From positions 682,001 through 746,000 of the forward strand of contig NZ_SDPQ02000002.1 in assembly GCF_004134905.2 (NCBI RefSeq): a DNA stretch of 64,000 nucleotides, in the 5' to 3' direction. Each line of letters begins with the position of its first letter. The first letter of the stretch is position 1. Shown one piece after another: positions 10,190-52,307 of this stretch. A program made the position numbers and the translations under genes. This stretch comes from Aeromicrobium ginsengisoli (GTDB lineage Bacteria > Actinomycetota > Actinomycetes > Propionibacteriales > Nocardioidaceae). The notes under the pieces are model-generated. The model ran no database searches. It saw nothing but the letters and a program-made list of their open reading frames with translations, and was not told where the DNA came from.

Positions 10190-10204
10190 GTGGCACCTCC
10201 TGGC

Positions 10205-12813: not shown

Positions 12814-13737
12814 CTAACCCTTCACCGCCCCCGCCGTGAGGCCGGCGATGACGTGTCGTTGGAACACGGCGTAGATGACCAGTTGTGGGAGCAGCACCAA
12901 GGTCGCGGCGGCCATCATGCCGCCGTAGTCGACGGTGTACTGCCCCTGGAACTTCGAAACCGCCAAGGAGACCGTTGCCAGGTCCGGGTTGTTGATCAGG
13001 ATCGAGACGAACGGGAACTCGTTGAAGACGTAGACGACGTTGAAGATCAAGATCGTGGCGATCACGGGTCGCATGGTCGGCAGCACCACCGACCAGCAGA
13101 TGCGGAACAGGCCGGCTCCGTCGATGATCGCGGCTTCCTCCAGCTCCTTCGGGAACTCGCGCAGGAACCCCGTCAGGAGCAAGGTGTTGAACGGGATCGA
13201 TACCGCGATGTACGGCAGGATCAGCGCCGCGTAGGTGCCGAAGATGCCCAGGGCGAGGTCGATCCGGTAGATCGGGAACAGCAGGACGTAGACCGGTACG
13301 GCGAGGCCGGCGAGAAAGTAGAACCGAAGCGACGACCGGGCCGTGGGATGACGGAACACCATGCGAGTCAGCGCGTAGGACGCCATGAACGAGACGATCG
13401 CGCCGATGGTCACCGAGGCGAGCGCGACGATCAGCGTGTTCTTGTACATCTGCAACAGCGGGAGTGACGCCACGGCATTGCGGTAGTTGTCGAACGTCAG
13501 GGTCTTGATCGAGAACGGGTCCGACAGGATCGTGTCGCTCGGCTGCAGCGACAGGACCGTCACCCACAGGATCGGCAGCACGATGAGGAACGTGACCAGG
13601 TAGGCCGCCAGCCCCGTGAAGATCAAGCCTCGGCGTCGACGCGGCCGGGTGACCGGGCGAGGCCCGGCTGGGGGCGTTGAGATGGTCACGTCGCTCCTTG
13701 TTGTGTCGGGGGTGGCCGTGGGTGATGGGGTGATCAC
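12814..13737 (-). CDS. carbohydrate ABC transporter permease, MalG type
   Basis: A 307-residue inner-membrane permease with six hydrophobic segments. The EAA loop reads ELEEAAIIDGAGLFRICW, the site that docks the ATPase. It is the second permease of a sugar importer and its GTG start at 13737 overlaps the first permease's stop (GTGA). An N-terminal cytoplasmic tail of about 35 residues is rich in Pro, Thr and Arg. No ATPase gene lies nearby, which is common in actinobacteria where a shared MsiK/MalK-type ATPase serves many importers. By context the substrate should be fructo-oligosaccharides or difructose anhydrides. Confidence 0.93.
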   Translation of the reverse strand: MITPSPTATPDTTRSDVTISTPPAGPRPVTRPRRRRGLIFTGLAAYLVTFLIVLPILWVTVLSLQPSDTILSDPFSIKTLTFDNYRNAVASLPLLQMYKNTLIVALASVTIGAIVSFMASYALTRMVFRHPTARSSLRFYFLAGLAVPVYVLLFPIYRIDLALGIFGTYAALILPYIAVSIPFNTLLLTGFLREFPKELEEAAIIDGAGLFRICWSVVLPTMRPVIATILIFNVVYVFNEFPFVSILINNPDLATVSLAVSKFQGQYTVDYGGMMAAATLVLLPQLVIYAVFQRHVIAGLTAGAVKG

Positions 13738-14603
13738 GCGAGGCTCCGGCGTCGCGCGGCGGCCAGGTACGCGAGCGAGGTGAGCGCGCCGAGCACGAAG
13801 ATCACGACTGCGATGGCCATCCCGGAGCCGTAGCGCTGGTTGGTGAACGTGACGAAGTACATGTAGCTCACGAGCGTCTCCGAGCGGTGCACGGGCCCGC
13901 CGCCGGTCAGCATGTAGACGAGCTCGAAGATCTTGAAGACGTTCGTGATCAGCAGGACGGTGACGATGGCAAAGGTCTCCCGCATCATCGGAATGGTCAC
14001 GTGCCGCAGCTGCTGCCAAGACGTGGCGCCGTCCAGCTTGGCGGCCTCGATGACATCGTTGGGGACGAGCTGGAGACCCGCGTAGAAGATGGTCATCGCG
14101 AAGCCGATGCTGCTCCAGACGAACACCAACGAGACCGAGTACGGAGTCAGGGAGTTGCCGCCGATCCATTGAATGGGTCCGACTCCGAGCGGCTCGAGGA
14201 GACGATTCAGCAGACCGATCTTCGGGTCGAGAATGAACACCCACATGAGTCCCACCAGGATCGGCGCGATGATCGCCGGCCCGAAGACCAGCGCTCGGAG
14301 GCCGCCGGCGAACGCGATCCTGCGACGAAGCAGCAGCGCGAGCGCGAAGGAGGACGGGATGAGGATGACCAGGCTGACGACGAGAATCACGACGGTGTTG
14401 CGCAGCGACTGCCAGAAGAACGGGTCATCCAGGAGTGCCGTGTAGTTGTCGATTCCGACGAACTTGGCGCCGCCGAATCCGGCGGAGTTGGTGAAGCTGT
14501 ACGCGATCGCGTACCCAACTGGATAGACGAAGAACGCCGTGAAGAGTGCCAGTGCCGGCGCGAGCATCAGGGCGATCTTCCAACGGGAACTGACCCAGAC
14601 CAT
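13734..14603 (-). CDS. carbohydrate ABC transporter permease, MalF type
   Basis: A 289-residue permease with six membrane segments and the EAA loop EAAKLDGATSWQQLRHVTIP. It pairs with the downstream MalG-type permease (four-base overlap) and with the binding protein encoded upstream. The ribosome site is weak (GGAATGAG before the ATG). A perfect hairpin at 14647-14682 separates it from the binding-protein gene, which probably makes permease mRNA scarcer than binding-protein mRNA. Confidence 0.93.
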   Translation of the reverse strand: MVWVSSRWKIALMLAPALALFTAFFVYPVGYAIAYSFTNSAGFGGAKFVGIDNYTALLDDPFFWQSLRNTVVILVVSLVILIPSSFALALLLRRRIAFAGGLRALVFGPAIIAPILVGLMWVFILDPKIGLLNRLLEPLGVGPIQWIGGNSLTPYSVSLVFVWSSIGFAMTIFYAGLQLVPNDVIEAAKLDGATSWQQLRHVTIPMMRETFAIVTVLLITNVFKIFELVYMLTGGGPVHRSETLVSYMYFVTFTNQRYGSGMAIAVVIFVLGALTSLAYLAAARRRSLA

Positions 14604-14646
14604 GTGAACTCATTCCATGTCTTGATGCCGCCGGGGCGGCGCGTGT

Positions 14647-14682
14647 CTCGGGGTGCGCCCGGCCATCCGGGCGCACCCCGAG
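14647..14682 (-). terminator. 16-bp perfect hairpin between binding protein and permease genes
   Basis: The arms at 14647-14662 (ctcggggtgcgcccgg) and 14667-14682 are perfect inverted repeats around a 4-base loop (ccat). No T-run follows on the transcribed strand. Such stems after the binding-protein gene usually stop part of the transcription and protect the upstream mRNA from 3' decay, giving an excess of binding protein. Confidence 0.75.
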
Positions 14683-14687
14683 AATTG

Positions 14688-16004
14688 TCACTCGGCGTCG
14701 AGCGCTTTCTGGACCAGATCAACCGCCTGCCTGGGGGAGAGCTGATCCTGGATCACGCCGTAGATGCTGTCGTACATGGCGCTCGAGACCGCGGTCGACA
14801 CCAGCAGGTCGGGCTGCGACTGTGGGCTCGCCAGCTTCGGGTCCCGGGCCACGTCCAGGGCCGACTTCAGCACGCTCTGCTTGGTGGCGTCGATCTTCGG
14901 CTCGTAGTCCGTGACCGGGGGCTGCCCGTTGTCGACCAAGAGCTGCTGTGCTGCGTCGCTGTAGTAGAAGCCGAGGAACTTCTTCACGGCCGCGAGCTTC
15001 TTGCTGTTGCCGGCGACCTTGTGGTCGACGACGAGCGGCGCCGACGCGACATTCATGACGATGTTCTGGTCGCCGACACCGTCGGCAAAGGTGGCGCCGT
15101 TCCAGAAGACGGTGTCGGCGGCGACCTGGGAGTCCTGGATGGCGCTGGACGCCCAGACGCCCGCGTCGAGCATCGCGGCCTTGCCCTTGAGGTACTGGTC
15201 GACGGCCTGCTGGTAGGTCTGCGTGGAGACGTTCGAGGCGAACGCGCCGGCATCACGGAGCTGGGCGATGTGCTCGTACATTCGCACGAAGTCGGCGTTG
15301 TCGTAGCTCTCAGATCCGTCGAGGATGGCATCGATCTTGTCCTCGAAGCCGAAGCGGTCGAGCCACACCAGGAAGGACCACACGCTGAAGGACGACTGGT
15401 TGGCACCGTCGGAGATCGTGACGATCCCTTTGCTCTTGAGCTTCTTCGCGACGTTCACGAGGTCGTCGAACGTGGTCGGTTGCTCCAGGCCGTTGTCGCT
15501 GAGGATCTTCTTGTTCACCCAGAGGCCGGTGAGCAGGCCCTGGTAGGGGACGCCGTAGATCTTGTCCTGGGCCGTGAAGTTGCTGACCGTGCTCTTCGGC
15601 AGATGTGGCGTGATGCCCAGGTCGTCGAGCGTCGGCTTGAGGTTCATGAGCTTGCCGGCCTTCAGCATGTCCTCGGCGGTCGCCTTGTAGACCCAGAACA
15701 CGTCGGGCAGTGTGTCACTCTGAGCCGCGATCGAGAGAGCCTGGAGGTGCTCTGCGACGGCTTGGCCGCTGACCTCGACGTGGATGTCGGGATTGGCCTT
15801 CTCGAACGCTTTGACGATGGCCCACGTGGCAGGGTCGGCGGTCTTGACGTTCGGATTCTGCATCGACAGCGTGATCGTGGTCTTGCCGTCCTTGCTCTGG
15901 GCGTCGGTGGCGCTGCTGCACGCAGCGAGCGCGACGAGTGACGACACAGCCAGCACAACACCGGCAAGACGTTGCCGCCGGCCGGTGAACTTGCGACCAA
16001 ACAT
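14688..16004 (-). CDS. extracellular sugar-binding lipoprotein of ABC importer
   Basis: A 438-residue substrate-binding protein of the MalE-like family 1. The signal peptide ends in the lipobox LAAC, with the lipidated cysteine at residue 29. The mature part shows ITLSMQNPNVKTADPATW and PDIHVEVSGQAVAEHLQAL, typical of the first lobe. The ATG at 16004 follows AAAGGAAA. A longer upstream frame exists but it would put the signal peptide in the middle of the protein. Two LacI-type palindromes lie 50-80 bases upstream, so the importer is probably repressed without fructan. The predicted ligand is a fructose oligomer or anhydride, by context only. Confidence 0.92.
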   Translation of the reverse strand: MFGRKFTGRRQRLAGVVLAVSSLVALAACSSATDAQSKDGKTTITLSMQNPNVKTADPATWAIVKAFEKANPDIHVEVSGQAVAEHLQALSIAAQSDTLPDVFWVYKATAEDMLKAGKLMNLKPTLDDLGITPHLPKSTVSNFTAQDKIYGVPYQGLLTGLWVNKKILSDNGLEQPTTFDDLVNVAKKLKSKGIVTISDGANQSSFSVWSFLVWLDRFGFEDKIDAILDGSESYDNADFVRMYEHIAQLRDAGAFASNVSTQTYQQAVDQYLKGKAAMLDAGVWASSAIQDSQVAADTVFWNGATFADGVGDQNIVMNVASAPLVVDHKVAGNSKKLAAVKKFLGFYYSDAAQQLLVDNGQPPVTDYEPKIDATKQSVLKSALDVARDPKLASPQSQPDLLVSTAVSSAMYDSIYGVIQDQLSPRQAVDLVQKALDAE

Positions 16005-16054
16005 GGCGTTTCCTTTACACGAGGTGGGTCGAGACGAGCGAAATCGAGTTCTGA

Positions 16055-16081
16055 TCGAAACGTTTGCGCGAATCGTTTCGC
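16055..16081. promoter_or_regulatory. tandem LacI-family operators before the importer operon
   Basis: Two adjacent palindromes, tcgaaacgtttgcg (16055-16068) and gcgaatcgtttcgc (16068-16081), have the central-CG layout of LacI-family operators. They lie between the importer operon and the 3' end of the repressor gene, upstream of the binding-protein start. Similar sites precede the other fructan genes, so the LacI protein encoded at 16128-17138 is the natural candidate regulator. Confidence 0.78.
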
Positions 16082-16127
16082 ACAATGTAGGTGACCCCCG
16101 TCACAGGTGTCAAGAGCCCTCGATCGA

Positions 16128-17138
16128 TCAGTCCGCGGCCGCCGCGAAGACGTAATCCTCGCTCGACGAGCGCAGTTCCAGCCGTTGATTGAGCCGGGTG
16201 GTTCGTGGACTCGTTCCGGGCGTGGCCAGGCGCTCGATGAGCATGCCGACAGCAGCCATTCCCATCTCGAACGCGGGTTGCCGGACCGTGGTGATGGAAG
16301 GCCGGAACAGGTCCGAATGATTGAACCCGTCGAAGGTGGCGAAGGCGATGTCACCAGGCACCGAGATCCCAGCGTCCCGCAGTGTTTCGAGAGCGGCAAC
16401 GGCGAGCGGGCTGCTGGCCGCGATGACACAGGTGGGATGCCCGTCCACCACTGCGGCTCGAAGAGCTTGCCGGATCTGAGTGTTGTCAGACCCCTCCAGG
16501 ACGACGCTTTCGGCTGCTTCGGGGCCCGTCACCGCGTCCCGGAAGCCGGCGAGTCGCTCGATCAGCGTGGGCACGCGCGTGTCGCCGGCCACGACGACGA
16601 AGCTGCGGTGCCCCTGCGAGAGAAGGTGCGTCGCCAGTCGTCGCATGCTCTCGCGGTTGTCGGCCCCGACCTGATCACACGAAGCGCCGTCGAAGACTCG
16701 GTCGAGCAGCACAACCGGCGGCGTGTCAGCAGAAATCGCCTTCATGACTTCGGCCGATGACTGTGCGCACCGGGCGAGGATGAGCCCGTCGACTCGGCGG
16801 CCCAGCAACGTGTGGACGGCGCGGGTCTCGCGTTCCTGGTCCTCGGCAGAATTCGCAAGCACCAGGGTCAGGCCCTGTGCGGCGGCGGCCTGCTCCACAC
16901 CGTGCACCATCTCGGCGAATGCCGGCTCGCCGGCGTCCGACACCACGAGACCGATGCTGTCCGTACGCGACCGACGCATCGCGCGGGCCAGCGTGTCTTG
17001 CCGGTAGCCGGTCTTCTCGATCGCGTCGAGCACCCTCTTGCGGGTCGCCGGCTGGACCTTTCGCGTGCCGTTCAGGACGTGCGAAACGGTTGAGGTCGAC
17101 ACCTGGGCCAGGCGGGCGACTTCCACGATCGTGGCCAT
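16128..17138 (-). CDS. LacI-family transcriptional repressor of the fructan module
   Basis: A 336-residue regulator. The N-terminal helix-turn-helix is TIVEVARLAQVSTSTVSHVLNG with the hinge helix TLARAMRRSRT, followed by a periplasmic-binding-protein-like effector domain (IGLVVSDAGEPAFAEMV and later IAFATFDGF). The start at 17138 puts the HTH at the N terminus as in all LacI members. An operator copy lies only 11 bases upstream of the ATG, which suggests autorepression. The effector is probably fructose, an anhydride or a fructo-oligosaccharide (inference). Confidence 0.93.
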   Translation of the reverse strand: MATIVEVARLAQVSTSTVSHVLNGTRKVQPATRKRVLDAIEKTGYRQDTLARAMRRSRTDSIGLVVSDAGEPAFAEMVHGVEQAAAAQGLTLVLANSAEDQERETRAVHTLLGRRVDGLILARCAQSSAEVMKAISADTPPVVLLDRVFDGASCDQVGADNRESMRRLATHLLSQGHRSFVVVAGDTRVPTLIERLAGFRDAVTGPEAAESVVLEGSDNTQIRQALRAAVVDGHPTCVIAASSPLAVAALETLRDAGISVPGDIAFATFDGFNHSDLFRPSITTVRQPAFEMGMAAVGMLIERLATPGTSPRTTRLNQRLELRSSSEDYVFAAAAD

Positions 17139-17148
17139 ATGTCTCCGT

Positions 17149-17160
17149 TCAAACGTTTCG
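17149..17160. promoter_or_regulatory. LacI-type operator before the repressor gene
   Basis: The sequence tcaaacgtttcg is a near-copy of the palindrome found before the other fructan genes and sits 11 bases upstream of the repressor start codon, consistent with autoregulation. Confidence 0.7.
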
Positions 17161-17262
17161 GTCGTGGTCGCGGCAGCGCCGGCGGCCTTGATAGCGGTCA
17201 ACATAGCGCGGAAGCAGCCGACGTTGCGTCGAGACGTTCGTCGTGTCTAGTATGCATCGACG

Positions 17263-17275
17263 CGCAAACGTTTCG
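17263..17275. promoter_or_regulatory. LacI-type operator before the GH172-GH32-kinase operon
   Basis: The sequence cgcaaacgtttcg lies about 50 bases upstream of the GH172 start, where it would overlap a promoter or the initial transcribed region. It matches the other sites of the module at the core AAACGTTT. Confidence 0.76.
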
Positions 17276-17327
17276 ATGCGCGCGTTCATACTCTCCGGGG
17301 GCTGCCCGCCCGCATGAAAGGACGATC

Positions 17328-18683
17328 ATGACTGCAGAATTCGCTCCCAGCGGCCTCTTGGGGGACCTCACCAGGGCCCGCCCGGGGCGCTCCGCGCGGG
17401 CTTCGAGCTTCGACCAGACCGGACGCAACCGGGACAACTGGATCGTCATGCCCGGTGAGGAGCGGACGCTCGCCGACCTCGAAGGCCCCGGATTCATCAC
17501 GCACATCTGGATGACGCAGTCCTGCCGGGTCCAGCCCGGACCCGGCCAGATCGACCCGACCGTCGTCGGGGTGCCGATGCTCGAGATCCACAACGCACTC
17601 GGGGTCAGCTGGGAGGTCGTCGACCCGGACTACTACCGCAAGGTGCTGCTCAAGATCTACTGGGACGACCAGGACGCCCCGAGTGTCATCGCGCCGCTGG
17701 GCGACTTCTTCGGGCTGATGAATTCGCTGTCGGGGAGCTACGACTCCCTCCCACTGTCGGTCTCGGCCAAGGAGTCAGAGCTCAACACCTTCGGGGGCAG
17801 CGCGGCGTTCAACAGCTACTTCAGGATGCCGTTCGGCAAGCGCGCTCGCGTCGTCGTGGAGAACCAGAACGACATCCCGTACCTGCAGTACTTCTACATC
17901 GACTACGAGCTGTCGCCGACCCCGTTGCCCGAGGACACGGTCTACTTCCACTCGCACTGGCGCCGGGCGCTGCCCAACGCGGGGTGGGGACCCGACCTTC
18001 AGGCCAACAGCATCGAGACCACGGTCGCCAACCTCGACGGCGCCGACAACTACGTCGCACTCGAGACTGAGGGCCGCGGCCACTATGTCGGCTGCACCCT
18101 CGCCGTGCGGCACTTCCAGGGCTCATGGTGGGGCGAGGGTGACGACATGATCTTCATCGATGACGACACGTGGCCGCCCAGCCTCCACGGCACCGGCATG
18201 GAGGACTACTTCGGACACGCCTGGGGCATGCAGCGCAACGCGTACCAGTTCAACGGCACGATCGTCCACGAGGAAGACGTGCCTGGCTTCCACCACAGCT
18301 ACCGGTTCCACATGGTCGACCCGATCCGTTTCGAGAAGCGCATCAAGGTCACCTTCGAACACGGCCATGGCAACCACCTCTCCGACGACTGGTCGTCGAC
18401 GGCGTACTGGTATCAAACTCTGCCTTCACCGGTGCTGCAGGTGCCTGACGTCGACCAGCGACTCCCGCTACGCCCGATCGACCGGATCATCGAGGCGCCG
18501 CTGCCGCCTTTGAACGACGAGCAGCGTGCCGCCCGCCAGCAGGCTGCGGAGCGGATGAGTACGTTCGTTGCCGCGCGGGATGCGCTTCGGGAGGAGCGTC
18601 GGGCGCAGATCGACGAGTGGGAGCGTGGCAACCTCGCCCAGGCTCGGGCCATCCGCCGCGCCTACGACGCGGGACGGGAGTGA
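17328..18683 (+). CDS. GH172 (DUF2961) glycoside hydrolase, putative difructose-anhydride hydrolase/synthase
   Basis: A 451-residue protein of the DUF2961/GH172 family. The founding member, from Bifidobacterium dentium, interconverts inulobiose and difructose dianhydride I. Visible family blocks are GPGFITHIWMT near residue 61, SWWGEGDDM with Glu270, and HGTGMEDYFGHAW with Glu292. These two glutamates sit where the nucleophile and acid/base were reported in that enzyme, as I recall it. There is no signal peptide, so it acts in the cytoplasm. ATG 17328 follows AAGGA. It overlaps the GH32 gene (GTGA) and shares an operon with a sugar kinase. Opening of imported anhydrides is the natural role. 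Other GH172 members cleave arabinofuranosides, so the specificity is inferred from the neighbours. Confidence 0.82.
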   Translation: MTAEFAPSGLLGDLTRARPGRSARASSFDQTGRNRDNWIVMPGEERTLADLEGPGFITHIWMTQSCRVQPGPGQIDPTVVGVPMLEIHNALGVSWEVVDPDYYRKVLLKIYWDDQDAPSVIAPLGDFFGLMNSLSGSYDSLPLSVSAKESELNTFGGSAAFNSYFRMPFGKRARVVVENQNDIPYLQYFYIDYELSPTPLPEDTVYFHSHWRRALPNAGWGPDLQANSIETTVANLDGADNYVALETEGRGHYVGCTLAVRHFQGSWWGEGDDMIFIDDDTWPPSLHGTGMEDYFGHAWGMQRNAYQFNGTIVHEEDVPGFHHSYRFHMVDPIRFEKRIKVTFEHGHGNHLSDDWSSTAYWYQTLPSPVLQVPDVDQRLPLRPIDRIIEAPLPPLNDEQRAARQQAAERMSTFVAARDALREERRAQIDEWERGNLAQARAIRRAYDAGRE

Positions 18684-19933
18684 CGGACGTGCGACCCTCA
18701 CTCCATTTCACCGCGCAGCGTGGCTGGATCAACGACCCGCACGGCTTGACGTTCCACAACGACACGTATCACCTGTTCCACCAGTACGTGCCGGACAGCA
18801 TGGTCTGGGCGCCGAACTGTCACTGGGGCCATGCCACGAGCCCGGACCTGGTGAATTGGACGCACCATGATGTCGCGTTAGCGCCAGGCGACGGCGACGA
18901 CGGCATCTGGACCGGTTGCCTCGTCAAGGACGGGGCGGAGACCCGCGTTCTCTACACCTCTGTCGCCGAGCCGAATCTCGGTCTTGGTCGAGTCCGAGTG
19001 GCCACTCCCAATGACGAGACCTGGGACTCGTGGACGAAGGGGGACATGGTCGTACGTGCCCCGGAAGACATGGACCTCATTGCCTATCGCGACCCGTTCG
19101 TCGCCCGTGACGGGTCGGGTTGGCGCATGTACATCGGCGCCGCCACTAGGGACGGTCAGGCTCTCGCCCTCACCTACACCAGCGACGACCTGCAGGCGTG
19201 GGCCTACGACGGTGTGGCACTTTCCCGCTCGACGCACGAGACCGATCCCGTCTGGATGGGTGCGCTGTGGGAGTGCCCGCAGATCTTCGAGGTCGACGGG
19301 CACTGGGTCATGGTGAGCTCGGTGTGGGACGACGACGTCCTTCACTACGTCGGATACGGCATCGGTGGTGCCGACTCGCAGGCCGACGGAAGATTCACTC
19401 CCGCGGACTGGGGCCAGCTGAGCTTCGGTGAGTCGTACTACGCTCCGTCGTTCTTCCGCGACCGAGAGCAACGACCGTGTTTGATGTTCTGGATGCGGGG
19501 CGTCAGTGACGTCGACCAAGGTTGGGCGAGCTGCCTCAGCGTGCCCTATCTTCTGTCGGCCCGGGACGGACGAATCGTCGCCGATCCTCATCCGGAGATC
19601 GCCGGGCGTCGCACCACGCGTCTTGGCGCGCGCGAGGCGGCTTCGGCGTTCGACCTTGAGTGGCTGCCGGCTCCGGCCGGCGACCAGCTGGTCCTGGCCG
19701 CCGATGCGGGCAAGACCGCATGTCTGACCGTCACCGACGGGGCTGTGACCTTGGAGCGCCCAGGCCGTGACGTCTGGTCGATGCCATGGTCAGGCGAAAA
19801 GCTGCGGGTGCTCGTCGACGGCTCGGTCATCGAGGTCTCGTCGACCGTGGGTGTCCTGGGCGGTGCCATCGAGCCCAGCACCACCTGGCACTCGGTCGTG
19901 GGGGAGTGCACGGCCTGGAGCCTCGGAGAATGA
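18680..19933 (+). CDS. intracellular GH32 beta-fructosidase
   Basis: A 417-residue GH32 enzyme without signal peptide. The three acidic motifs are present: WINDPHG with the nucleophile Asp19, YRDPF with the transition-state Asp138, and WECPQ with the acid/base Glu198. A short C-terminal beta-sandwich follows. It releases terminal fructose from sucrose or fructo-oligosaccharides, and in this operon probably from the inulobiose or levanbiose formed by the GH172 enzyme. The GTG start at 18680 overlaps the GH172 stop and puts the WINDP motif at its usual place near the N terminus. Confidence 0.92.
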   Translation: MTDVRPSLHFTAQRGWINDPHGLTFHNDTYHLFHQYVPDSMVWAPNCHWGHATSPDLVNWTHHDVALAPGDGDDGIWTGCLVKDGAETRVLYTSVAEPNLGLGRVRVATPNDETWDSWTKGDMVVRAPEDMDLIAYRDPFVARDGSGWRMYIGAATRDGQALALTYTSDDLQAWAYDGVALSRSTHETDPVWMGALWECPQIFEVDGHWVMVSSVWDDDVLHYVGYGIGGADSQADGRFTPADWGQLSFGESYYAPSFFRDREQRPCLMFWMRGVSDVDQGWASCLSVPYLLSARDGRIVADPHPEIAGRRTTRLGAREAASAFDLEWLPAPAGDQLVLAADAGKTACLTVTDGAVTLERPGRDVWSMPWSGEKLRVLVDGSVIEVSSTVGVLGGAIEPSTTWHSVVGECTAWSLGE

Positions 19934-20892
19934 ACGCGAGTCCGCCCACGACTGCTGGCGATCAGCCGACCATCCTGGTTGTCGGCGAGGCGCTCGTCGA
20001 TGTCGTCGTCCGCCATGACGGCAGTCGTAGCGAGCATCGGGGCGGCAGCCCGGCGAATGTGGCGGTCGGACTCGGCAGGCTGGGGCATCCGGTCACACTC
20101 GCGACGTCACTTGGCGATGACCCGCACGGCCGAATGATCGACGCCGAGCTCACGGCGAGCGGAGTCGCCCTGGCGCCTGGTCTCTTCAACGATCGACCGA
20201 CGTCGACGGCCACGGCCTGGCTGGACTCGCGCGGGTCAGCCCGGTACGACTTCGACATCGTCTGGGAGCCGCGCAGCCTGGACGTCCTGCCGAAGGCGTC
20301 GTTCGTTCATGCAGGCTCGATCGCCGCATTCCTCGAACCTGGTGCGGATGCGGTCGAGGCGCTGATCGGGAGTGTCGCAGCCTCGACGATCGTGACGTTC
20401 GATCCCAACATCAGACCACGACTCCTTCCAGACCGCGCGGCCGTGCTGGCGCGGATGGATCGTCTGCTCCCGCGATGCGACGTCGTCAAGGTCAGCGATG
20501 AAGACCTGGACTGGCTGCACCCGGGCGTGCCTCCGACTGAGGTCGCGCGACGGTGGATCAGCCTCGGTGTTCGGCTGGTCGTGCTCACCGCCGGGGCACG
20601 CGGATCGTTCGCTGTCCACGAGGCCGGGGAGGTCCAGGTCGCGTCCTCAGTCACGCAGGTGGTCGACACGATCGGCGCCGGAGACGCGTACATGTCGGGG
20701 TTGCTGGATGCCTTCGTGGCCGGGGCCCTGACGGGACGGGAGCCGAGCGAATCAGTTCGGAATCTGACCCTGGCTCAGGTGCGAATCTGCATGCAGCACG
20801 CCAACACGTCCGCGGCGATCACCGTGGGCCGGATGGGCTCCGAGCCACCCCTGCGGCATGAGCTTCCCAGCTTGATCCCCGCGAAGGTCTGA
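19930..20892 (+). CDS. PfkB-family carbohydrate kinase, probable fructokinase
   Basis: A 320-residue ribokinase-family enzyme. The N-terminal substrate part includes ILVVGEALVDVVV and RGGSPANVAVGLGRLG. The C-terminal catalytic motif is DTIGAGDAYMSGLLDAF with the base Asp252 in GAGD. It should phosphorylate fructose released by the preceding GH32 enzyme to fructose-6-phosphate. The ATG overlaps the GH32 stop (ATGA), so the hydrolase and kinase are made together. Nothing resembling a terminator is seen before the next unit. Confidence 0.9.
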   Translation: MNASPPTTAGDQPTILVVGEALVDVVVRHDGSRSEHRGGSPANVAVGLGRLGHPVTLATSLGDDPHGRMIDAELTASGVALAPGLFNDRPTSTATAWLDSRGSARYDFDIVWEPRSLDVLPKASFVHAGSIAAFLEPGADAVEALIGSVAASTIVTFDPNIRPRLLPDRAAVLARMDRLLPRCDVVKVSDEDLDWLHPGVPPTEVARRWISLGVRLVVLTAGARGSFAVHEAGEVQVASSVTQVVDTIGAGDAYMSGLLDAFVAGALTGREPSESVRNLTLAQVRICMQHANTSAAITVGRMGSEPPLRHELPSLIPAKV

Positions 20893-20933
20893 CCACAGCT
20901 CTCGCGAATGTCTTCCGGCCTGAGCGTTCGTCT

Positions 20934-20945
20934 GCGAAACGTTTG
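20934..20945. promoter_or_regulatory. LacI-type operator upstream of the GH91 unit
   Basis: The sequence gcgaaacgtttg matches the fructan-module palindrome. It lies 42 bases after the kinase stop codon and upstream of the putative promoter for the leader ORF and GH91. Confidence 0.75.
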
Positions 20946-20976
20946 TCTCGAATCGTGAGCAGTCTCAACCCCGTAC

Positions 20977-21006
20977 TTGTGATCCAGGCCACAGCGGTTG
21001 TACGTT
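20977..21006 (+). promoter_or_regulatory. putative promoter of the leader-GH91-GH32 unit
   Basis: A TTGTGA (-35-like, 20977-20982) and TACGTT (-10-like, 21001-21006) are separated by 18 bases. Transcription would start about 7 bases later, on or next to the ATG at 21013, so the leader ORF may be read from a leaderless mRNA. An operator copy just downstream (21024-21036) could block the polymerase. This is inferred from spacing only. Confidence 0.45.
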
Positions 21007-21012
21007 CTTCGC

Positions 21013-21213
21013 ATGGAGAACGTCGAAACGTTTGCGCCATCACCTGGCGGCCCTGCCCACCTGTCTCGGCGTCGCCTGATCCAGGCCTTCGCCGCGACGC
21101 TGGTGGTGGCTCAGATCGGCGGCATGGGCGTCGGCGGGCCCGAGACGGCAACTGCGGTTGCTGCCACGACCCAGTCGCCGCCTGCGTACGACGACATCGT
21201 GGGCCTGCTCTGA
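21013..21213 (+). CDS. short ORF consisting of a twin-arginine signal peptide
   Basis: A 66-residue ORF beginning MENVETFAPSP and containing SRRRLIQAF followed by a hydrophobic stretch, the layout of a Tat signal peptide with its twin arginines. It stops about 28 residues after the hydrophobic part. The GH91 gene that follows lacks a signal peptide and starts 52 bases later in another frame. Both frames carry stops between them, so one simple frameshift would not fuse them. It may be a decayed export signal, a regulatory leader peptide or a small membrane peptide. An operator palindrome lies inside codons 4-8. Confidence 0.45.
   Translation: MENVETFAPSPGGPAHLSRRRLIQAFAATLVVAQIGGMGVGGPETATAVAATTQSPPAYDDIVGLL
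21024..21036. promoter_or_regulatory. LacI-type operator inside the leader ORF
   Basis: The sequence cgaaacgtttgcg matches the module palindrome and lies 18-30 bases beyond the putative -10 box, a position suited to blocking elongation or initiation. Confidence 0.7.
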
Positions 21214-21265
21214 CCAGTCCTCTGAAGCCCGTTCTGCTCTCAATGTTCGATGAAAGGACCTCCCC

Positions 21266-22441
21266 ATGGCACCCACCGTCTATGACGTGACGACCTGGCC
21301 TGCGAGCGTGTCGCCCTACAGCGACATCGGACAGGTGATCAACGAGATCATCGCCGACATCCACAGCGTGCAGACCAGCCCGACGACCCGGCCCGGTGCG
21401 GTGATCTACATCCCGCCGGGCCACTACACCCTCGAGACGACGGTGAACATTGACGTCGGGTTCCTGACCATCAAGGGGTCGGGGCACGGATTCATGTCCG
21501 AGGCCGTCCGGGACGGCACGGATCATTCGGCCTGGGTGGAGACCCTGCCCGGCTCGAGCCACGTGCAGATCGCGAACAGCGACCAGGTGGGCTTTCTGGT
21601 CAATCGGGCGACCGACCCGGGCGCGAACGGTCGGCTGAACTCGATCGTCTTCCAGGACTTCTGCATCGACGGGGTCAGTGCCAGCAAGCCGTACCTGCCC
21701 GGGAACGGCAAGACCGGCATCAAGGTGCAGTACGACTCCGACTCGCTGCGAGTCGAAGGCATGGGGTTCGTCTACCTCGCGAATGCGTTGGTGGTGCGCA
21801 ACGCGGACGCGTTCAACATCACCAACAACTTCATCACCGAGTGCGGCAACGCGATTCAGCTCGTCAATGGCGCCATCGTCGGCAAGATCACCAACAACTA
21901 CCTGATCACCCCGTGGGCCGGGAACTCCATCTTTCTGGAGAACAACGACAACTGCCTCATCAGCGGCAACAGCCTGCTCTGGGGCGCGCGGATCCAGCTC
22001 AAGAACGCCCACCGCACGCTGATCACCGGCAACAAGTTCGTCAGCAACTTCTCCGGGATGATCGTCCAGGAGGCTTCGTGCCACGAGCACCTCATCTCTG
22101 GAAACCATTTCAGGCGGATCTTCGGTGACGGAGGCCCCGCTCGCAACGACGATCTCTACGGGATGGTTCAGCTCAACGGCAATGACAACTCGGTCACGGC
22201 CAACACCTTTTCGTTCGACGTCCCGACGGCTGAGATCCTGCCGTCAGGTGCCACGCCCACGGTCGTGCTGGTGAAGGACGGGGATCGGAACTTCCTGGCC
22301 ACCAACAAGCTCGTGGCGAACGTTCCCGTTCGGCACGTCCTGGACGGGAACTCCAGCGCCACCAAGGTGCTGTGGTCCGCCACGACTTCGCAGCTGCAGG
22401 ACCTGACCGGCGGCGACATGTCCTTCGTTGCCACTCCCTGA
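21266..22441 (+). CDS. GH91 family: inulin fructotransferase or difructose-anhydride III hydrolase
   Basis: A 391-residue right-handed beta-helix enzyme. It shares with known inulin fructotransferases the start YDVTTWPASVSPYSDIG, INEIIADI, RPGAVIYIPPGHYTL, NGKTGIKV, MGFVYLANALVVR, NDDLYGMVQLNGNDN and DVPTAEILPSGATPTVVLV. Family members either cyclise inulin ends to difructose anhydride I or III outside the cell or open DFA III inside it. This copy has no signal peptide, which favours the intracellular hydrolase, yet a detached Tat signal ORF lies directly upstream, which favours a once-secreted fructotransferase. The start has a good site (AAAGGA) and an in-frame TGA at 21251 rules out extension. 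Confidence 0.88.
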   Translation: MAPTVYDVTTWPASVSPYSDIGQVINEIIADIHSVQTSPTTRPGAVIYIPPGHYTLETTVNIDVGFLTIKGSGHGFMSEAVRDGTDHSAWVETLPGSSHVQIANSDQVGFLVNRATDPGANGRLNSIVFQDFCIDGVSASKPYLPGNGKTGIKVQYDSDSLRVEGMGFVYLANALVVRNADAFNITNNFITECGNAIQLVNGAIVGKITNNYLITPWAGNSIFLENNDNCLISGNSLLWGARIQLKNAHRTLITGNKFVSNFSGMIVQEASCHEHLISGNHFRRIFGDGGPARNDDLYGMVQLNGNDNSVTANTFSFDVPTAEILPSGATPTVVLVKDGDRNFLATNKLVANVPVRHVLDGNSSATKVLWSATTSQLQDLTGGDMSFVATP

Positions 22442-22442
22442 C

Positions 22443-24707
22443 ATGAGGCGCCGACTGATCGCGCTCCTGGTGGCGGCGCTCGCGGCCGCCGGACTGGCGG
22501 TCCTGCCCGCGACGTCTCCCGCTGCGCAGGCGGGTACGCCGTCGGACTATCCCGAGTACCCGTACGCCGCCACCGACTACACCGAGGCGTTTCGCGGACA
22601 GTTCCACTTCAGTCCGCAGAGCGGATTCATGAACGACATCAACGCCCCGCTCTACTACCGGGGTGTCTATCACCTGTTCTTCCAGCACAATCCGCACGGG
22701 CTCGGGTGGGACACCATCCACTGGGGGCACGCGACCAGTCCCGACCTGGTGCACTGGACGCAACAACCGATCGCACTGGAGCCGGGCGTGCATGCCGGCA
22801 ACCTCTGGTCGGGAGCGGGCTGGGTCGACGTCGACAACGTCACCGGGCTCAAGAAGGGAAACGACGACCCGATCCTGCTCTTCACCAACACCGAGGGCGT
22901 GAGCATCGCCTACTCGACCGATGGCGCGCGCACGTTCCAGATGTACAACGGCGGCGCCAAGGTCATCACCGACTCGACTGAAAGCCGTGACCCCAAGGTG
23001 CAGTGGGACGCTGCGAACAACCGCTGGGTCATGGTCACGTTCCGCGCCGGCACGGGTGCCGTCTTCTACACGTCCACCAACCTTCTCGACTGGACGTACC
23101 GTGGGACCTACGCCGCGAGCTGGTTCGTCGAGTGTCCCGATCTCTACCGCCTTCCCGTCGACGGGGGTGAGACCGAGAAGTGGGTGCTGCAGGATGCCAG
23201 CGGCGAGTACGTGATCGGCTCCCTGAACGCATCCGGAGTCTTCGTGTCCGACTGGGCGTCGCCTCAGCGGATGGAGTGGGGCAAGTCGGACGCCGCCTTC
23301 GCGCCGTCGGTCTGGTACGCCTCGCAGACCTTCAACCAGCTGCCCGCTGGCCGGGTGGTGCAGATGGGCTGGCAGCCCAGCAACGCCGGTGTCACGTGGA
23401 CGGGCAACGCGTCGTTCCCGGTCGAGCTGGGACTCAAGACCTTCCCGGAGGGCATCCGGCTCACCCGCAACCCGGTCAGCGAGATAGCCGGCATCCGGTC
23501 GTCCACCCAGACCTGGGGCAGTCGGTCGATCACCACGAGCTCGTCGAGCGATCCGCTCACCGGCATCAGCGCGGACACGTACGAGTTGACCGCGGTGTTC
23601 TCGCTCGATGGAGCCACGGCGAGCGAATTCGGGTTCCGGCTGCATGCACGCGCCGATGGAACGAGCGATCGCACCGTGGCCTACGCGACCGCGACCCAGA
23701 GCCTCTATGGGATGGCGCTGCCGCCGATCTCGAACCAGGTCACCATCCGGCTCCTGGTGGATCGCGGTCAGCTCGAGGTGTTCGGCAACGACGGCAAGAT
23801 GGTGTTCAGCGACAACGTCGAGTTCGATTCCTCTGCGGGGAGTCGCGGCATCAAGCTGTATGCGACGGGCGGATCGGTCACGCTGACGTCCCTCTCGTTC
23901 TCGCCCATCGAGTCCACCTGGGCGCCGGCCCCGGCGGGCCTCGCGCCGTCCGCGGCCATCGCGTCGACGGCGCATCAGGACATGTGTGTCGATCGTGACG
24001 TCGCGACCGGAAACGCGCAGCTGTGGAGCTGCCTGGGCAACGCCAACCAGACCTGGGCGCTCGACAGCTATGGGCAGCTGACGACCGGCGGGGTCTGCTT
24101 GCAGCTGCCGTCCGGACAGACCGCCAACCTGACCCTCGTCTCTGTCGCGGCATGCACCGGAGGGACGAATCAGAAGTGGCGCCAGGGCAACTTCGGATCG
24201 CTGATCAATCTCGCGTCGGGACGCTGCCTGGACGTGCCTGAGGCCGACTTCTCGAATGGGCGGCAGCTGCAGGTCTACGACTGCGTCGGCACCCGCAACC
24301 AGAGCTGGGTCGGCCCGCCATACTCGGCCGCGGCCGGACGGATCGCGTGGAACACGTCGACCTCGTGTGCAGATCGGGATGCGGCGACGGACACGGTGCA
24401 GATCTGGTCGTGCAACGGGCTGGCCAACCAGACGTGGCGACTGAATGCCGACGGGACTCTGACCAGCGGAGGAGCCTGCATGCAGCTGTCGCCGGGCTCG
24501 CTGGGCAACGGCGCGCTGGTCGGCAGTGCCGCCTGCTCGCCGACCGCGGCGAACCAGCGATGGAGCCGATTTGCGAACGGTCAACTGCGCAATGTCGCCG
24601 CGGGGAGGTGTCTCGACCTCGACTCGGGCAACACGACGAACGGCCGCCAGTTGATCGTGTGGGACTGCGTGGGCGGGCCCAACCAGACGTGGGCAGGACC
24701 GGCCTGA
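22443..24707 (+). CDS. secreted GH32 fructanase with two ricin-type (CBM13) lectin domains
   Basis: A 754-residue exported enzyme. A Sec signal peptide (RRRLIALLVAALAAAGLAVL) ends near residue 33. The GH32 beta-propeller has GFMNDIN with nucleophile Asp65 (MNDIN instead of the usual MNDPNG), SRDPK with Asp183 and ECP with Glu230, then the C-terminal beta-sandwich. Residues ~505-750 hold two ricin B-type lectin domains with repeated NQTW/NQKW-type Q-x-W motifs and paired cysteines, which bind polysaccharide. It starts one base after the GH91 stop. It degrades extracellular levan or inulin. Whether it is exo-, endo- or transfructosylating is not decidable here. Confidence 0.92.
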   Translation: MRRRLIALLVAALAAAGLAVLPATSPAAQAGTPSDYPEYPYAATDYTEAFRGQFHFSPQSGFMNDINAPLYYRGVYHLFFQHNPHGLGWDTIHWGHATSPDLVHWTQQPIALEPGVHAGNLWSGAGWVDVDNVTGLKKGNDDPILLFTNTEGVSIAYSTDGARTFQMYNGGAKVITDSTESRDPKVQWDAANNRWVMVTFRAGTGAVFYTSTNLLDWTYRGTYAASWFVECPDLYRLPVDGGETEKWVLQDASGEYVIGSLNASGVFVSDWASPQRMEWGKSDAAFAPSVWYASQTFNQLPAGRVVQMGWQPSNAGVTWTGNASFPVELGLKTFPEGIRLTRNPVSEIAGIRSSTQTWGSRSITTSSSSDPLTGISADTYELTAVFSLDGATASEFGFRLHARADGTSDRTVAYATATQSLYGMALPPISNQVTIRLLVDRGQLEVFGNDGKMVFSDNVEFDSSAGSRGIKLYATGGSVTLTSLSFSPIESTWAPAPAGLAPSAAIASTAHQDMCVDRDVATGNAQLWSCLGNANQTWALDSYGQLTTGGVCLQLPSGQTANLTLVSVAACTGGTNQKWRQGNFGSLINLASGRCLDVPEADFSNGRQLQVYDCVGTRNQSWVGPPYSAAAGRIAWNTSTSCADRDAATDTVQIWSCNGLANQTWRLNADGTLTSGGACMQLSPGSLGNGALVGSAACSPTAANQRWSRFANGQLRNVAAGRCLDLDSGNTTNGRQLIVWDCVGGPNQTWAGPA

Positions 24708-24718
24708 GCAGTCGCGCG

Positions 24719-25004
24719 CGCTGGACTCCGTCGGGCGCTGAGCGCCCTCCTCCCCGAATCCTGAACGCCGGGGGAGTTGCGCCGTGACCTCGCGTTTCAG
24801 ACTGCGCCCCCGGCAGGACTCCGTCGGGCGCTGAGCGCCCTCCTCCCCGAATCCTGGACGCCGGGGGAGTTGCGAGGTGATCTTGCGGAAATCTGTGCGT
24901 CCCCGGCAGGACTCCGTCGGGCGCTGAGCGCCCTCCTCCCCGAATCCTGGACGCCGGGGGAGTTGCGAGGTGATCTTGCGGAAATCGGTGCGCCCCCGGC
25001 AGGA
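24719..25004. repeat. 93-bp tandem repeat array ending at a tRNA-like attachment site
   Basis: Three units with a period of exactly 93 bases: a partial one to 24801, 24802-24894 and 24895-24987, plus the first ~17 bases of a fourth (24988-25004) that runs into a tRNA 3' end. Each unit holds a perfect hairpin gggcgc-tga-gcgccc (first copy 24733-24747) and an imperfect larger inverted repeat, ccccggcagg against gaatcctggacgccgggg. Both arms resemble the acceptor and T-arm of the adjacent tRNA remnant. Because 93 is a multiple of three, all frames stay open across it, but I see no reason to call it coding. The hairpins may end transcription from the fructan operon. Confidence 0.85.
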
Positions 25005-25169: not shown

Positions 25170-26429
25170 ATGGCAAGGTTGACGGATAAGCGCAAACGAG
25201 ACCTGCGGATTGCGCTTGAGTTGTGGCTCCGTGAGCGAGGCGACGCCTTTGGCACGATTGAGCAACTTCCGTCGGGTCGTCTGCGAGCCCGGTACACCGT
25301 GGACTCTGGAAGATTCTCAGCCCCGACGACATACGACAATCTTACCGATGCTCGAGCGTGGTTGGAGGAACAGCGCAAGGCAGTGCTTGGCGGCTACTGG
25401 GTGGATCCAAAGAGGGTGGAGTCGGATGCCCGGCACGCCTCGACCAGCCTTAATGAGCTCTTTGAGATGTACATGGCGGAAGGTGATCTGAAGCCGCGGA
25501 CAAGGGACCTGTACACGTCGCAATGGCGACGTCTCATCGAGCCGACTATAGGCGCCAAATCGGTCGTCACCCTCACGGCGTTGGACGTTGCGGAGTGGCG
25601 TAATGCACTGCCGCCAGCCCCGCGTCAGCGTGAGCAGGCGAATGATCTGCTGCGTGCGGTCTTGAACTTAGCGATTGAGCATGGCCGAATCGCAACAAAT
25701 CCGGCGGTGACCACTCGTCGCAAGACGGCCGCAAGGCGAACACATCGACGCGATCCCGAGCGAACCTTCCGACTAACGCGCGAACAGGTCGCTGCACTGG
25801 CCGACGCGATGCAGCCGAAGTATCGCTTCGCAGTCCTGTTGTCAGCCGGCACAGGTGTGCGGATCGGCGAGCTAGCCGCTCTGCGGCGCAGCGACCTGAC
25901 GATCATTCGCGACAAGGAAGGCAGGATCGTCCGAGCGCGGGTGCGAGTCGAAAGAGCGGTGACTCAGGCTAAGGGTGAGGACGGCAAGTTGAGGACATTC
26001 GAGGGCACACCAAAGACGGATGCTGGAATCCGCACGATCGCGCTGCCTTCTCGTCTGCACGATGAACTGGAAGCGCATCTGTCAGCACATGCGTTGCCAG
26101 GCAGGGATGGCCTCCTGTTCACCAGGCCAAGCGGCGACCACCTGACGCTGAGTGCGATCTACGGGGAGAAGCCCGGCTTGAAGCGTCACGGACGGGGGCG
26201 GAAGCCCACTCCGACTGAGGGCAGAGGATGGTGGCGAGCGCGCGTCGTGGCCGGCGTCCCCAAAGCGCGGTGGCACCTGCTGAGGCACACAGCAATCTCA
26301 GAGGCCGTCGACGCCGGAGCGCGTCCCGCCGACCTGCTCGCTCGCTTCGGGCACACGGACCTATCCACCTCTGCGATCTATCAGCACTCAGCGACGGAAG
26401 CCGACGACAATCTCGCCGACAGGCTGTGA
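25170..26429 (+). CDS. int: site-specific tyrosine recombinase (integrase)
   Basis: A 419-residue phage-type integrase. An arm-binding N-terminal domain is followed by a SAM-like core-binding domain (LNELFEMYMAEGDLKPRTRDLY) and the catalytic domain with TGVRIGEL (Arg231), KTDAGIRT, HLLRHT and GHTDLSTSAIYQH with the nucleophile Tyr404. It would insert and excise the element at the adjacent tRNA 3' end. Codon use is more AT-tolerant than in the fructan genes upstream, in keeping with acquired DNA. Confidence 0.95.
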   Translation: MARLTDKRKRDLRIALELWLRERGDAFGTIEQLPSGRLRARYTVDSGRFSAPTTYDNLTDARAWLEEQRKAVLGGYWVDPKRVESDARHASTSLNELFEMYMAEGDLKPRTRDLYTSQWRRLIEPTIGAKSVVTLTALDVAEWRNALPPAPRQREQANDLLRAVLNLAIEHGRIATNPAVTTRRKTAARRTHRRDPERTFRLTREQVAALADAMQPKYRFAVLLSAGTGVRIGELAALRRSDLTIIRDKEGRIVRARVRVERAVTQAKGEDGKLRTFEGTPKTDAGIRTIALPSRLHDELEAHLSAHALPGRDGLLFTRPSGDHLTLSAIYGEKPGLKRHGRGRKPTPTEGRGWWRARVVAGVPKARWHLLRHTAISEAVDAGARPADLLARFGHTDLSTSAIYQHSATEADDNLADRL

Positions 26430-52223: not shown

Positions 52224-52273
52224 GGGCCGACTGTACGCGAACAGCTCGGGCGGGGGAGGATTTGGTCAGAATC

Positions 52274-52289
52274 TGGTAAGCGTTTCCAA
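52274..52289. promoter_or_regulatory. LacI-type operator between the regulator and the glycerate kinase gene
   Basis: The sequence tggtaagcgtttccaa is palindromic and lies in the 84-base space between the divergent LacI and kinase genes, where it could control both. Confidence 0.72.
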
Positions 52290-52307
52290 CCGAGAAGGAG
52301 TCGACCA

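What the first reader, a model, noticed from the sequence alone, without database searches (positions are those of the whole stretch)
12814..24707. Complete fructan/difructose-anhydride route combining GH91, GH172 and two GH32 enzymes under one LacI
Seen: importer, GH172, intracellular GH32, PfkB kinase, GH91 and a secreted GH32 with CBM13 in one cluster with shared operators. Known: GH172 was founded on an enzyme acting on difructose dianhydride I, and GH91 acts on inulin or DFA III. Inferred: the cell cuts or cyclises inulin outside, imports anhydrides or oligomers and opens them inside. Pairing GH91 with GH172 in one regulated locus would link DFA formation and use, a route I do not know to be described as a unit.
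Basis: partly seen in the sequence, partly recalled or inferred. Interest (0 to 1): 0.75.

Follow-up and report, generated by a model that had tools for sequence, protein, structure and literature searches.

The report
Sugar enzyme exported by separate signal
This gene cluster probably lets a bacterium turn the plant sugar inulin into a ring-shaped sugar outside the cell and eat it inside, and within it sits an overlooked tiny gene that may carry the signal-less outside enzyme across the membrane, which would explain an old puzzle about how that enzyme gets out.

Summary
The cluster is real, and its chemistry is most likely the difructose dianhydride I (DFA I) route: GH91 cyclises inulin outside; ABC import; GH172 opens DFA I; GH32 and a PfkB kinase follow. 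GH172 keeps all ten alphaFFase1 active-site residues checked. For 13 of 13 GH91s of this clade (window included) a GH172 lies nearby; 8 of 9 other inulin fructotransferases have a DFA-IIIase gene instead. The route is not new: Kashima et al. 2021 proposed it for Streptomyces davawensis.

Of 22 full-length inulin fructotransferases, 19 have such an ORF, 2 a fused signal, 1 neither; 0 of 21 DFA-IIIase-type genes have either. This would explain why a DFA I-forming enzyme was reported extracellular though its gene lacks a signal peptide. Best reading: a minimal Tat escort ('hitchhiker') in trans. Docking and Tat dependence are untested; an AlphaFold model did not place the tail.

The parts
12814..13737 (-). 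ABC permease (start uncertain: GTG at 13737 or 13689)
   Evidence: PF00528; homologue 64-81% identical in 11 of the 12 other GH172-type loci, 60% in the twelfth, L076
13734..14603 (-). ABC permease
   Evidence: PF00528, E 6.7e-16
14688..16004 (-). Sugar-binding protein of the importer
   Evidence: PF01547, E 6.8e-28 for the ORF with the upstream start
16056..16066 (+). Operator CGAAACGTTTG upstream of the importer genes
   Evidence: exact match
16128..17138 (-). LacI-family regulator
   Evidence: PF00356/PF00532
17150..17160 (-). Operator before lacI
   Evidence: exact match
17265..17275 (-). Operator before GH172
   Evidence: exact match
17328..18683 (+). GH172, DFA I synthase/hydrolase-like
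   Evidence: PF11175 E 3e-81; 7v1v 526 bits; ten of ten active-site residues checked are kept
18680..19933 (+). Intracellular-type GH32 beta-fructofuranosidase (GTG start, overlaps GH172 stop)
   Evidence: PF00251 E 2.2e-58; best solved match 1uyp beta-fructosidase
19930..20892 (+). PfkB sugar kinase, probably fructokinase
   Evidence: PF00294; best NCBIfam match fructokinase, 129 bits, below its cut-off of 450
20935..20945 (+). Operator upstream of the small ORF
   Evidence: exact match
21013..21213 (+). Small ORF, 66 aa: free-standing Tat-like signal with conserved C-terminal tail PPAYDDIVGLL; proposed Tat escort of GH91
   Evidence: no family match at E 0.01 in NCBIfam, none better than E 0.1 in Pfam
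21024..21034 (+). Operator inside the first codons of the small ORF
   Evidence: exact match
21266..22441 (+). GH91 inulin fructotransferase, DFA I-type clade, no signal peptide
   Evidence: PF18835; 8hsn 504 bits; tree
22443..24707 (+). Secreted-type GH32 (exo-inulinase-like) with two ricin-B/CBM13-type stretches
   Evidence: PF00251, PF08244, PF00652; 8i12 exo-inulinase best solved match

Best explanation
An inulin-use regulon working through DFA I. Outside, GH91 cuts inulin and closes the released difructose into DFA I, and a secreted GH32 takes off fructose. The ABC importer brings DFA I and small fructans in; inside, GH172 opens DFA I to inulobiose, GH32 splits that to fructose (and so pulls an equilibrium that favours DFA I) and PfkB phosphorylates fructose. 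LacI controls the transcripts through one operator type. GH91 has no signal peptide; it folds in the cytoplasm and leaves by the Tat translocase because a separate 66-aa protein, encoded just before it, supplies the Tat signal in trans and holds GH91 by its conserved C-terminal tail (Y-x-x-I-V-G-L-L-COOH). Shown: genes, operators, conservation and association of the small ORF, absence of a signal in GH91, conserved GH172 active site. Inferred: DFA I as product, import, regulation, tail docking, Tat-dependent co-export.
For: Route: GH172 nearest to alphaFFase1 with N31, D33, E85, K147, Y187, W267, E270, E291, D292, W298 all kept (10 of 10; E85 and K147 are +1 subsite residues whose mutants lose inulobiose but keep arabinoside activity in Table 2 of PMC8605356); GH172 near 13 of 13 GH91s of this clade, DFA-IIIase near 8 of 9 other IFTases; full-length GH172 of at least 60% identity in 4 of 197 class genomes including this one. 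Escort: separate Tat-like ORF before 19 of 22 full-length IFTase-type GH91s, fused signal in 2, neither in 1; 0 of 21 DFA-IIIase type have either. Random control: another RR+hydrophobic ORF in 90 of 2520 stretches, with the tail in 0 of 2520. Tail kept in amino acids with silent codon changes, all three stop codons used, gap to GH91 11-179 nt in all three phases in the 19 measured: two proteins, not a frameshifted one. The two fused signals lack the tail. A profile finds one tail-reaching match beside GH91 in 16 of 16 trans genomes (15 contributed to the profile, or are identical to a row; G1337 did not), and in 2 of 101 genomes of genus g25, both with a full-length GH91. Haraguchi 2011 (PMC5448860, part 1 of 2) reports the A. 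globiformis S14-3 DFA I enzyme in the supernatant though its gene has no signal peptide. TatC is in this genome. Precedent: MelC1/MelC2 (PMC2758597 passages).
Against: No experiment and no signal-peptide predictor was run; 'Tat' rests on RR, hydrophobic stretch and alignment. The window's own small ORF does not match the Pfam or NCBIfam Tat-signal models (8 of 19 members match PF10518, 6 of 19 TIGR01409). AlphaFold on an artificial read joining the two ORFs folded GH91 well but left residues 1-85 below pLDDT 50: tail not placed (18 rows, 6 of them with the tail, monomer only). One GH91 (L028; very long branch, genome with 7% contamination) has GH172 beside it but neither kind of signal. The small-ORF rule and the tail pattern were set after the first cases had been seen. 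DFA I as product rests on clade and partner; 8hsn is named only 'Fructotransferase'. The GH172 equilibrium favours DFA I 9:1 over inulobiose (PMC8605356 abstract). A secreted GH32 in the same operon could degrade inulin without DFA I.
Confidence: 0.72

Rival explanations
1. The small ORF is an exported peptide with a job of its own outside the cell (pheromone, inulin sensing), and GH91 leaves by lysis or a non-classical way.
For: The tail, not only the signal, is conserved; enzymes without signals can appear outside through lysis (general knowledge).
Against: Where looked for, the tail-bearing ORF was found only beside IFTase-type GH91 (listed matches; lists capped) and not in the two genomes with a fused signal or before 21 DFA-IIIase-type genes; a 20-30 residue peptide alone has no evident need of Tat, which carries folded cargo.
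Confidence: 0.15
2. The small ORF is a stable subunit that also helps GH91 fold, trimerise or bind substrate, export being only part of its role, as for the FAD-GDH gamma subunit.
For: PMC6719666 passages: the hitchhiker gamma-subunit is needed for proper folding and secretion and stays in the complex.
Against: The two fused IFTases and the 21 DFA-IIIase-type GH91s do without the tail. Whether the 8hsn crystal (97% identical to trans-type L016: 382 of 393 positions) held any other chain was not seen.
Confidence: 0.25
3. The upstream ORF is a decayed piece of an originally fused signal peptide, or a sequencing error, and this GH91 is now intracellular.
For: Both pieces look like the two parts of one precursor; two IFTases on the DFA III side are fused.
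Against: The same split with the same tail before 19 distinct genes, in all three phases; both Arg and the tail Gly invariant in 19 of 19 aligned.
Confidence: 0.03
4. The cluster makes or uses DFA III, not DFA I.
For: GH91 as a family does both (PMC8605356 passage); the product of 8hsn was not read here.
Against: The genome search found one GH91 place, so no second, DFA-IIIase-type gene; the partner is GH172 with the DFA I-type +1 subsite.
Confidence: 0.1

Closest known systems
Three-stage DFA I route proposed for Streptomyces davawensis JCM 4913 (Kashima et al. 2021, PMC8605356)
   Same: Extracellular GH91, intracellular GH172 and GH32 genes with near-by locus tags; same logic. Tags 0187 to 0194 would fit GH91, one extra gene, two permeases, binding protein, LacI, GH172, GH32 if ordered as in L005 (inference; that record was not seen).
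   Different: Section 15 speaks of a transporter only in general and names no regulator, secreted GH32 or Tat ORF for S. davawensis.
DFA III route of Arthrobacter (IFTase III + DFA-IIIase)
   Same: GH91 outside, importer, hydrolase and GH32 inside; 7 of the 9 IFTases on that side of the tree also have the separate Tat-like ORF.
   Different: The hydrolase is a second GH91, not GH172.
MelC1/MelC2 (Streptomyces tyrosinase)
   Same: A Tat-signal protein encoded just upstream of a signal-less enzyme that is exported as a passenger (PMC2758597 passages).
   Different: MelC1 is also needed for copper insertion and is larger (size recalled); GH91 is not known to need a cofactor (recalled). Only 2 of 19 small ORFs match the MelC1 model, weakly (best E 0.032).
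FAD-glucose dehydrogenase gamma subunit; periplasmic [NiFe] hydrogenases; PaoABC
   Same: Tat hitchhiker export (PMC6719666 passages; PMC10924467 passages; PMC4273604 seen in a listing).
   Different: Partners are subunits of redox enzymes, the gamma subunit at least 163 residues long (residue numbers); here the escort has about 20-30 residues after the signal.
TIGR02811 formate_TAT
   Same: 11 of 19 small ORFs match this model, best E 1.6e-7; its name says 'formate dehydrogenase region TAT target'.
   Different: The window's own ORF does not match it; that family is small Tat proteins with another C-terminal motif (recalled).

Membership tests
GH91 inulin fructotransferase, DFA I-forming (EC 4.2.2.17) | GH91 sequence family and Asp/Glu pair 11 residues apart | tested here: met
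   PF18835 E 3.1e-27; D181 and E192 of the window's GH91 (265 and 276 in the joined numbering) invariant in 18 of 18 rows; same spacing as D207/E218, named critical in PMC4640833 (passage); assigned by alignment and spacing only
GH91 inulin fructotransferase, DFA I-forming (EC 4.2.2.17) | groups with DFA I-type rather than DFA III or DFA-IIIase enzymes | tested here: inconclusive
GH91 inulin fructotransferase, DFA I-forming (EC 4.2.2.17) | product is DFA I | not testable with these tools
   needs assay
GH172 DFA I synthase/hydrolase | DUF2961 family with the alphaFFase1 catalytic and +1 subsite residues | tested here: met
   10 of 10 residues checked; above Pfam cut-off
GH172 DFA I synthase/hydrolase | activity on DFA I/inulobiose | not testable with these tools
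   needs assay
Three-stage DFA I pathway (Kashima 2021) | exported GH91, importer, intracellular GH172 and GH32 | tested here: inconclusive
   all genes present with shared operators; export of GH91 only by inference; importer substrate unknown
Tat hitchhiker export | partner with twin-arginine signal co-encoded with a signal-less cargo | tested here: met
   no signal-peptide predictor run, and the window's ORF does not hit the Tat-signal models
Tat hitchhiker export | complex forms before export | tested here: inconclusive
   AlphaFold did not place the tail
Tat hitchhiker export | export of cargo depends on Tat and on the partner | not testable with these tools
   needs mutants
MelC1 apotyrosinase chaperone | matches the MelC1 model | tested here: not met
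   window's ORF no match; 2 of 19 members weakly
TIGR02811 formate_TAT | model match of the window's ORF and place beside formate dehydrogenase | tested here: not met
   window's ORF matches only TIGR01412, E 0.036; it lies beside GH91

The most novel reading that the evidence does not exclude
Inulin fructotransferases are exported by a signal peptide supplied as a separate gene: a minimal Tat 'ticket' of about 60 residues, of which only some 20-30 remain after the signal, grips the folded enzyme by its last five to eight residues. If GH91 is a trimer (recalled for solved relatives; Haraguchi 2011 took the S14-3 enzyme for a monomer), one ticket may serve three subunits. The separate state is on both sides of the unrooted GH91 tree, so it may be the older one, with fusion once in a DFA III-forming branch and loss of export in the branch that became DFA-IIIase. 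The tail could serve as a portable Tat tag.
Probability: 0.5. Interest if true: 0.75.

Novelty: new variant of a known kind. Interest (0 to 1): 0.62.

Why it matters
It offers a directly testable answer to a puzzle in print: a DFA I-forming inulin fructotransferase is extracellular, yet its gene has no signal peptide (PMC5448860). If true, it adds a sugar enzyme to the Tat hitchhiker systems, with an escort smaller than the ones read about here, warns that gene-by-gene signal prediction would call such enzymes intracellular, and gives makers of difructose anhydrides a two-gene cassette for secretion. The locus survey also suggests, without product data, that the partner gene (GH172 or DFA-IIIase) could be used to guess which anhydride a GH91 makes.

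Tried and rejected
Rejected: that the GH91-GH172 pairing is undescribed. Rejected: that the split is a broken or frameshifted gene. Rejected as unlikely: a D-arabinan role for this GH172. Led nowhere: placing the tail by AlphaFold; the small ORF alone gave mean pLDDT 69 with a short helix at 60-65. Mixing small ORFs with GH91 in one alignment failed, MAFFT scattered them. GH91 columns that differ between trans and both other kinds: five (positions 4, 39, 70, 104, 186), no control, a lead only. By eye a TTGTGA-18 nt-TACGTT promoter would put the transcript start on the ATG at 21013, but the consensus scan found 0 promoters there; not claimed. Papers looked at for a trans-signal precedent: nothing in the passages of PMC7317946, only reference-list hits in PMC13323110, nothing of the kind in PMC4148689 (passages). 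Not in print as far as searched: (20 of 1,188 papers listed), 52, 53, 89, 96 and 105 in an open-access library; the one paper holding both 'inulin fructotransferase' and 'twin-arginine' (PMC10991766, passages) uses them apart. Subscription papers were not seen, among them the 1995 cloning paper and the papers of 8hsn/8hui.

Rows dropped before counts: L023 (same gene as L003), L011 and L014 (same genes as L017 and L032), L053 (script returned L044's gene), L051 (no hit), fragments L019/L021, L020, L034, L056. L044 is in the tree but not in alignment A1; L056 is in A1 but not in the tree. The second GH91s of G1337 and of the StoSoilB13 plasmid were not scanned for a signal; of 85 plasmid records with a GH91 three were fetched.


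Full report
Observation. The window holds the cluster described, from a permease at 12814 to the stop of a secreted-type GH32 at 24707. GH172 (17328-18683), GH32 (18680-19933) and PfkB (19930-20892) overlap by four bases each; the importer and lacI genes run the other way. Five exact CGAAACGTTTG sites lie in its regulatory regions; with up to one mismatch there are 7 sites in the window against 0.70 expected and 0 of 100 shuffles as high. The genome search found one GH91 place and one DUF2961 place. Of 197 genomes drawn from the window's own family, 1, this one, has a GH91 match, and G+C is 0.652 in the cluster against 0.699 in the left flank, so the cluster was probably acquired.

Which anhydride. 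The GH172 scores 526 bits to alphaFFase1 (7v1v) and 197, 174 and 100 to the other three matched chains, the last of them named exo-alpha-D-arabinofuranosidase. All ten alphaFFase1 residues looked at are kept, among them E85 and K147, whose mutants in Table 2 of PMC8605356 (passage) lose inulobiose but keep arabinoside activity. The GH91 scores 504 bits to 8hsn (named only 'Fructotransferase'), 308 to a DFA III-forming enzyme (9j4i), 306 to 2inu and 245 to a DFA-IIIase. In a tree of 47 rows (43 genes and 4 PDB chains) it falls in a 100/100 group of 14 rows that holds 8hsn and excludes 2inu, 9j4i and 5zky. The gene next door follows the tree: GH172 lies in the neighbourhood of 13 of 13 GH91 genes of that group, the window included (the other twelve 49-90% identical to the window's), while 8 of 9 other IFTases have a DFA-IIIase-type gene nearby; the ninth (L042) has a distant GH172 of 39%. 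G1371 has both routes side by side. As background, 4 of 197 class genomes, this one included, hold a full-length GH172 of at least 60% identity. DFA I is therefore the likely intermediate, although no product was measured. The alphaFFase1 equilibrium lies 9:1 toward DFA I (PMC8605356 abstract), so the neighbouring GH32 would have to pull it.

Not a new route. Kashima et al. 2021 (PMC8605356; passages, sections 14 and 15) already propose a three-stage route through DFA I for Streptomyces davawensis with GH91 BN159_0187, GH172 BN159_0193 and GH32 BN159_0194.

The overlooked part. GH91 starts at what is the mature end of its relatives (MAPTVYDVTTW...) with no signal peptide. Just upstream lies a 66-aa ORF (21013-21213): a twin-arginine signal (LSRRRLIQA...) and a tail ending AYDDIVGLL-stop. 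I saw the same in Isoptericola, Leifsonia and Streptomyces loci, then in two more loci of genus g25, first searched with a pattern that used the tail (it missed L024 and L026, whose ORFs I then read by eye), and then used a rule that does not look at the tail: ORFs of 40-110 aa with RR followed by a hydrophobic stretch within 420 bp upstream. Result, duplicates and fragments removed: 19 of 22 full-length IFTase-type GH91 genes have such an ORF; 2 (L027, L045) carry such a signal fused to the enzyme; 1 (L028) has neither. Of 21 DFA-IIIase-type genes, whose studied relatives are described as intracellular or without signal peptide (PMC11538131 passages; PMC4640833 passages), 0 have either. The same rule on 2520 random stretches of the neighbourhoods gives another such ORF in 90 and one with a G-[LVM]-[LI]-stop tail in 0; the tail pattern was set after the tails had been seen.

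It is a gene of its own. Over 20 small ORFs (the 19 and that of fragment L056) the tail keeps its amino acids while third codon positions change, all three stop codons occur, the gap to GH91 ranges from 11 to 179 nt and falls in all three phases (19 measured), and a purine-rich, ribosome-binding-like stretch precedes GH91 by eye. In the alignment of 19, both Arg and the Gly of the tail are invariant. A profile of these finds a match reaching the tail once, beside GH91, in 16 of 16 trans genomes; 15 of these contributed to the profile or are identical to a row, G1337 did not. In 101 genomes of genus g25, which I take to be Streptomyces, it finds two at E 1e-8, both in genomes with a full-length GH91 (61 candidates per listed genome were scored). 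The window's own ORF matches no NCBIfam family at E 0.01 and none in Pfam better than E 0.1, the general Tat-signal models included; 11 of 19 members match TIGR02811, a model of small Tat proteins beside formate dehydrogenase, best E 1.6e-7, 8 of 19 match PF10518 and 6 of 19 TIGR01409.

Mechanism. In the two fused enzymes the tail is absent; among full-length genes it is present only where signal and enzyme are separate chains. I take this as the mark of a docking element: the tail holds folded GH91, and Tat, which carries folded proteins, exports both. This is the hitchhiker principle known from MelC1/MelC2 (PMC2758597 passages), [NiFe] hydrogenases (PMC10924467 passages) and FAD-glucose dehydrogenase (PMC6719666 passages). 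[quoted passage not shown] Whether a small ORF precedes that S14-3 gene was not checked. TatC is present in this genome. An AlphaFold run on an artificial joined read placed GH91 well and the small ORF not at all (residues 1-85 under 50); with 18 rows, six of them paired, and a monomer only, I count this as no support rather than as refutation.

Evolution. The separate state occurs in 12 of the 13 genes of the DFA I-type group and in 7 of 9 IFTases on the other side; the two fused genes group with 2inu and 9j4i (100/100), and the DFA-IIIase types form one group with 5zky (100/100) inside the rest. The tree is unrooted, so the direction is inference, but one fusion and one loss of export would suffice, apart from L028, which lies on a very long branch.

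Verdict. The locus is a well-supported example of a route already proposed; the new thing is the probable trans Tat escort, a new variant of a known kind, testable with one deletion.

Noticed in passing
24723-25004 and 25170-26429: A 93-bp unit repeated three times lies between the cluster and a phage-type integrase gene. A secretion-type ATPase ORF (T2SSE, 30721-32034) and an SAF-domain ORF (29127-29954) follow; together with lower G+C this looks like an integrated element abutting the cluster.
   Followed up: partly
L076 (G1034) 6947-8107: A divergent GH91 (38% identity) beside GH172 and GH32 with neither separate nor fused Tat-like signal; very long branch, genome with 7% contamination.
   Followed up: partly
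L077 (G704) 9409-10323: A GH91 of genus g25 that begins only at residue 43 of the query, with no Tat ORF in the 420 bp before it and none of the other cluster genes within about 10 kb: probably a relict.
   Followed up: partly
L056 (G1341): A short 5' GH91 fragment inside a contig still preceded by the small Tat-like ORF.
   Followed up: no
L069/L078 (G1371): DFA I-type cluster and DFA-IIIase cluster side by side in one genome, with the GH91 and a GH32 between them.
   Followed up: partly
L070/L079 (G1380): Trans-type IFTase whose neighbour is a distant GH172 (39%) and no DFA-IIIase within the stretch read: possibly a third pairing.
   Followed up: no
GH91 positions 4, 39, 70, 104, 186 of the window protein: Columns where trans-type enzymes differ from both fused and DFA-IIIase types; the first four could line one face near the N-terminus, a candidate docking surface (no control, no structure looked at).
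   Followed up: no
51189-52223 and 51726-53432: A second LacI-family gene and a glycerate kinase ORF overlap on opposite strands as called mechanically; true starts not worked out.
   Followed up: no
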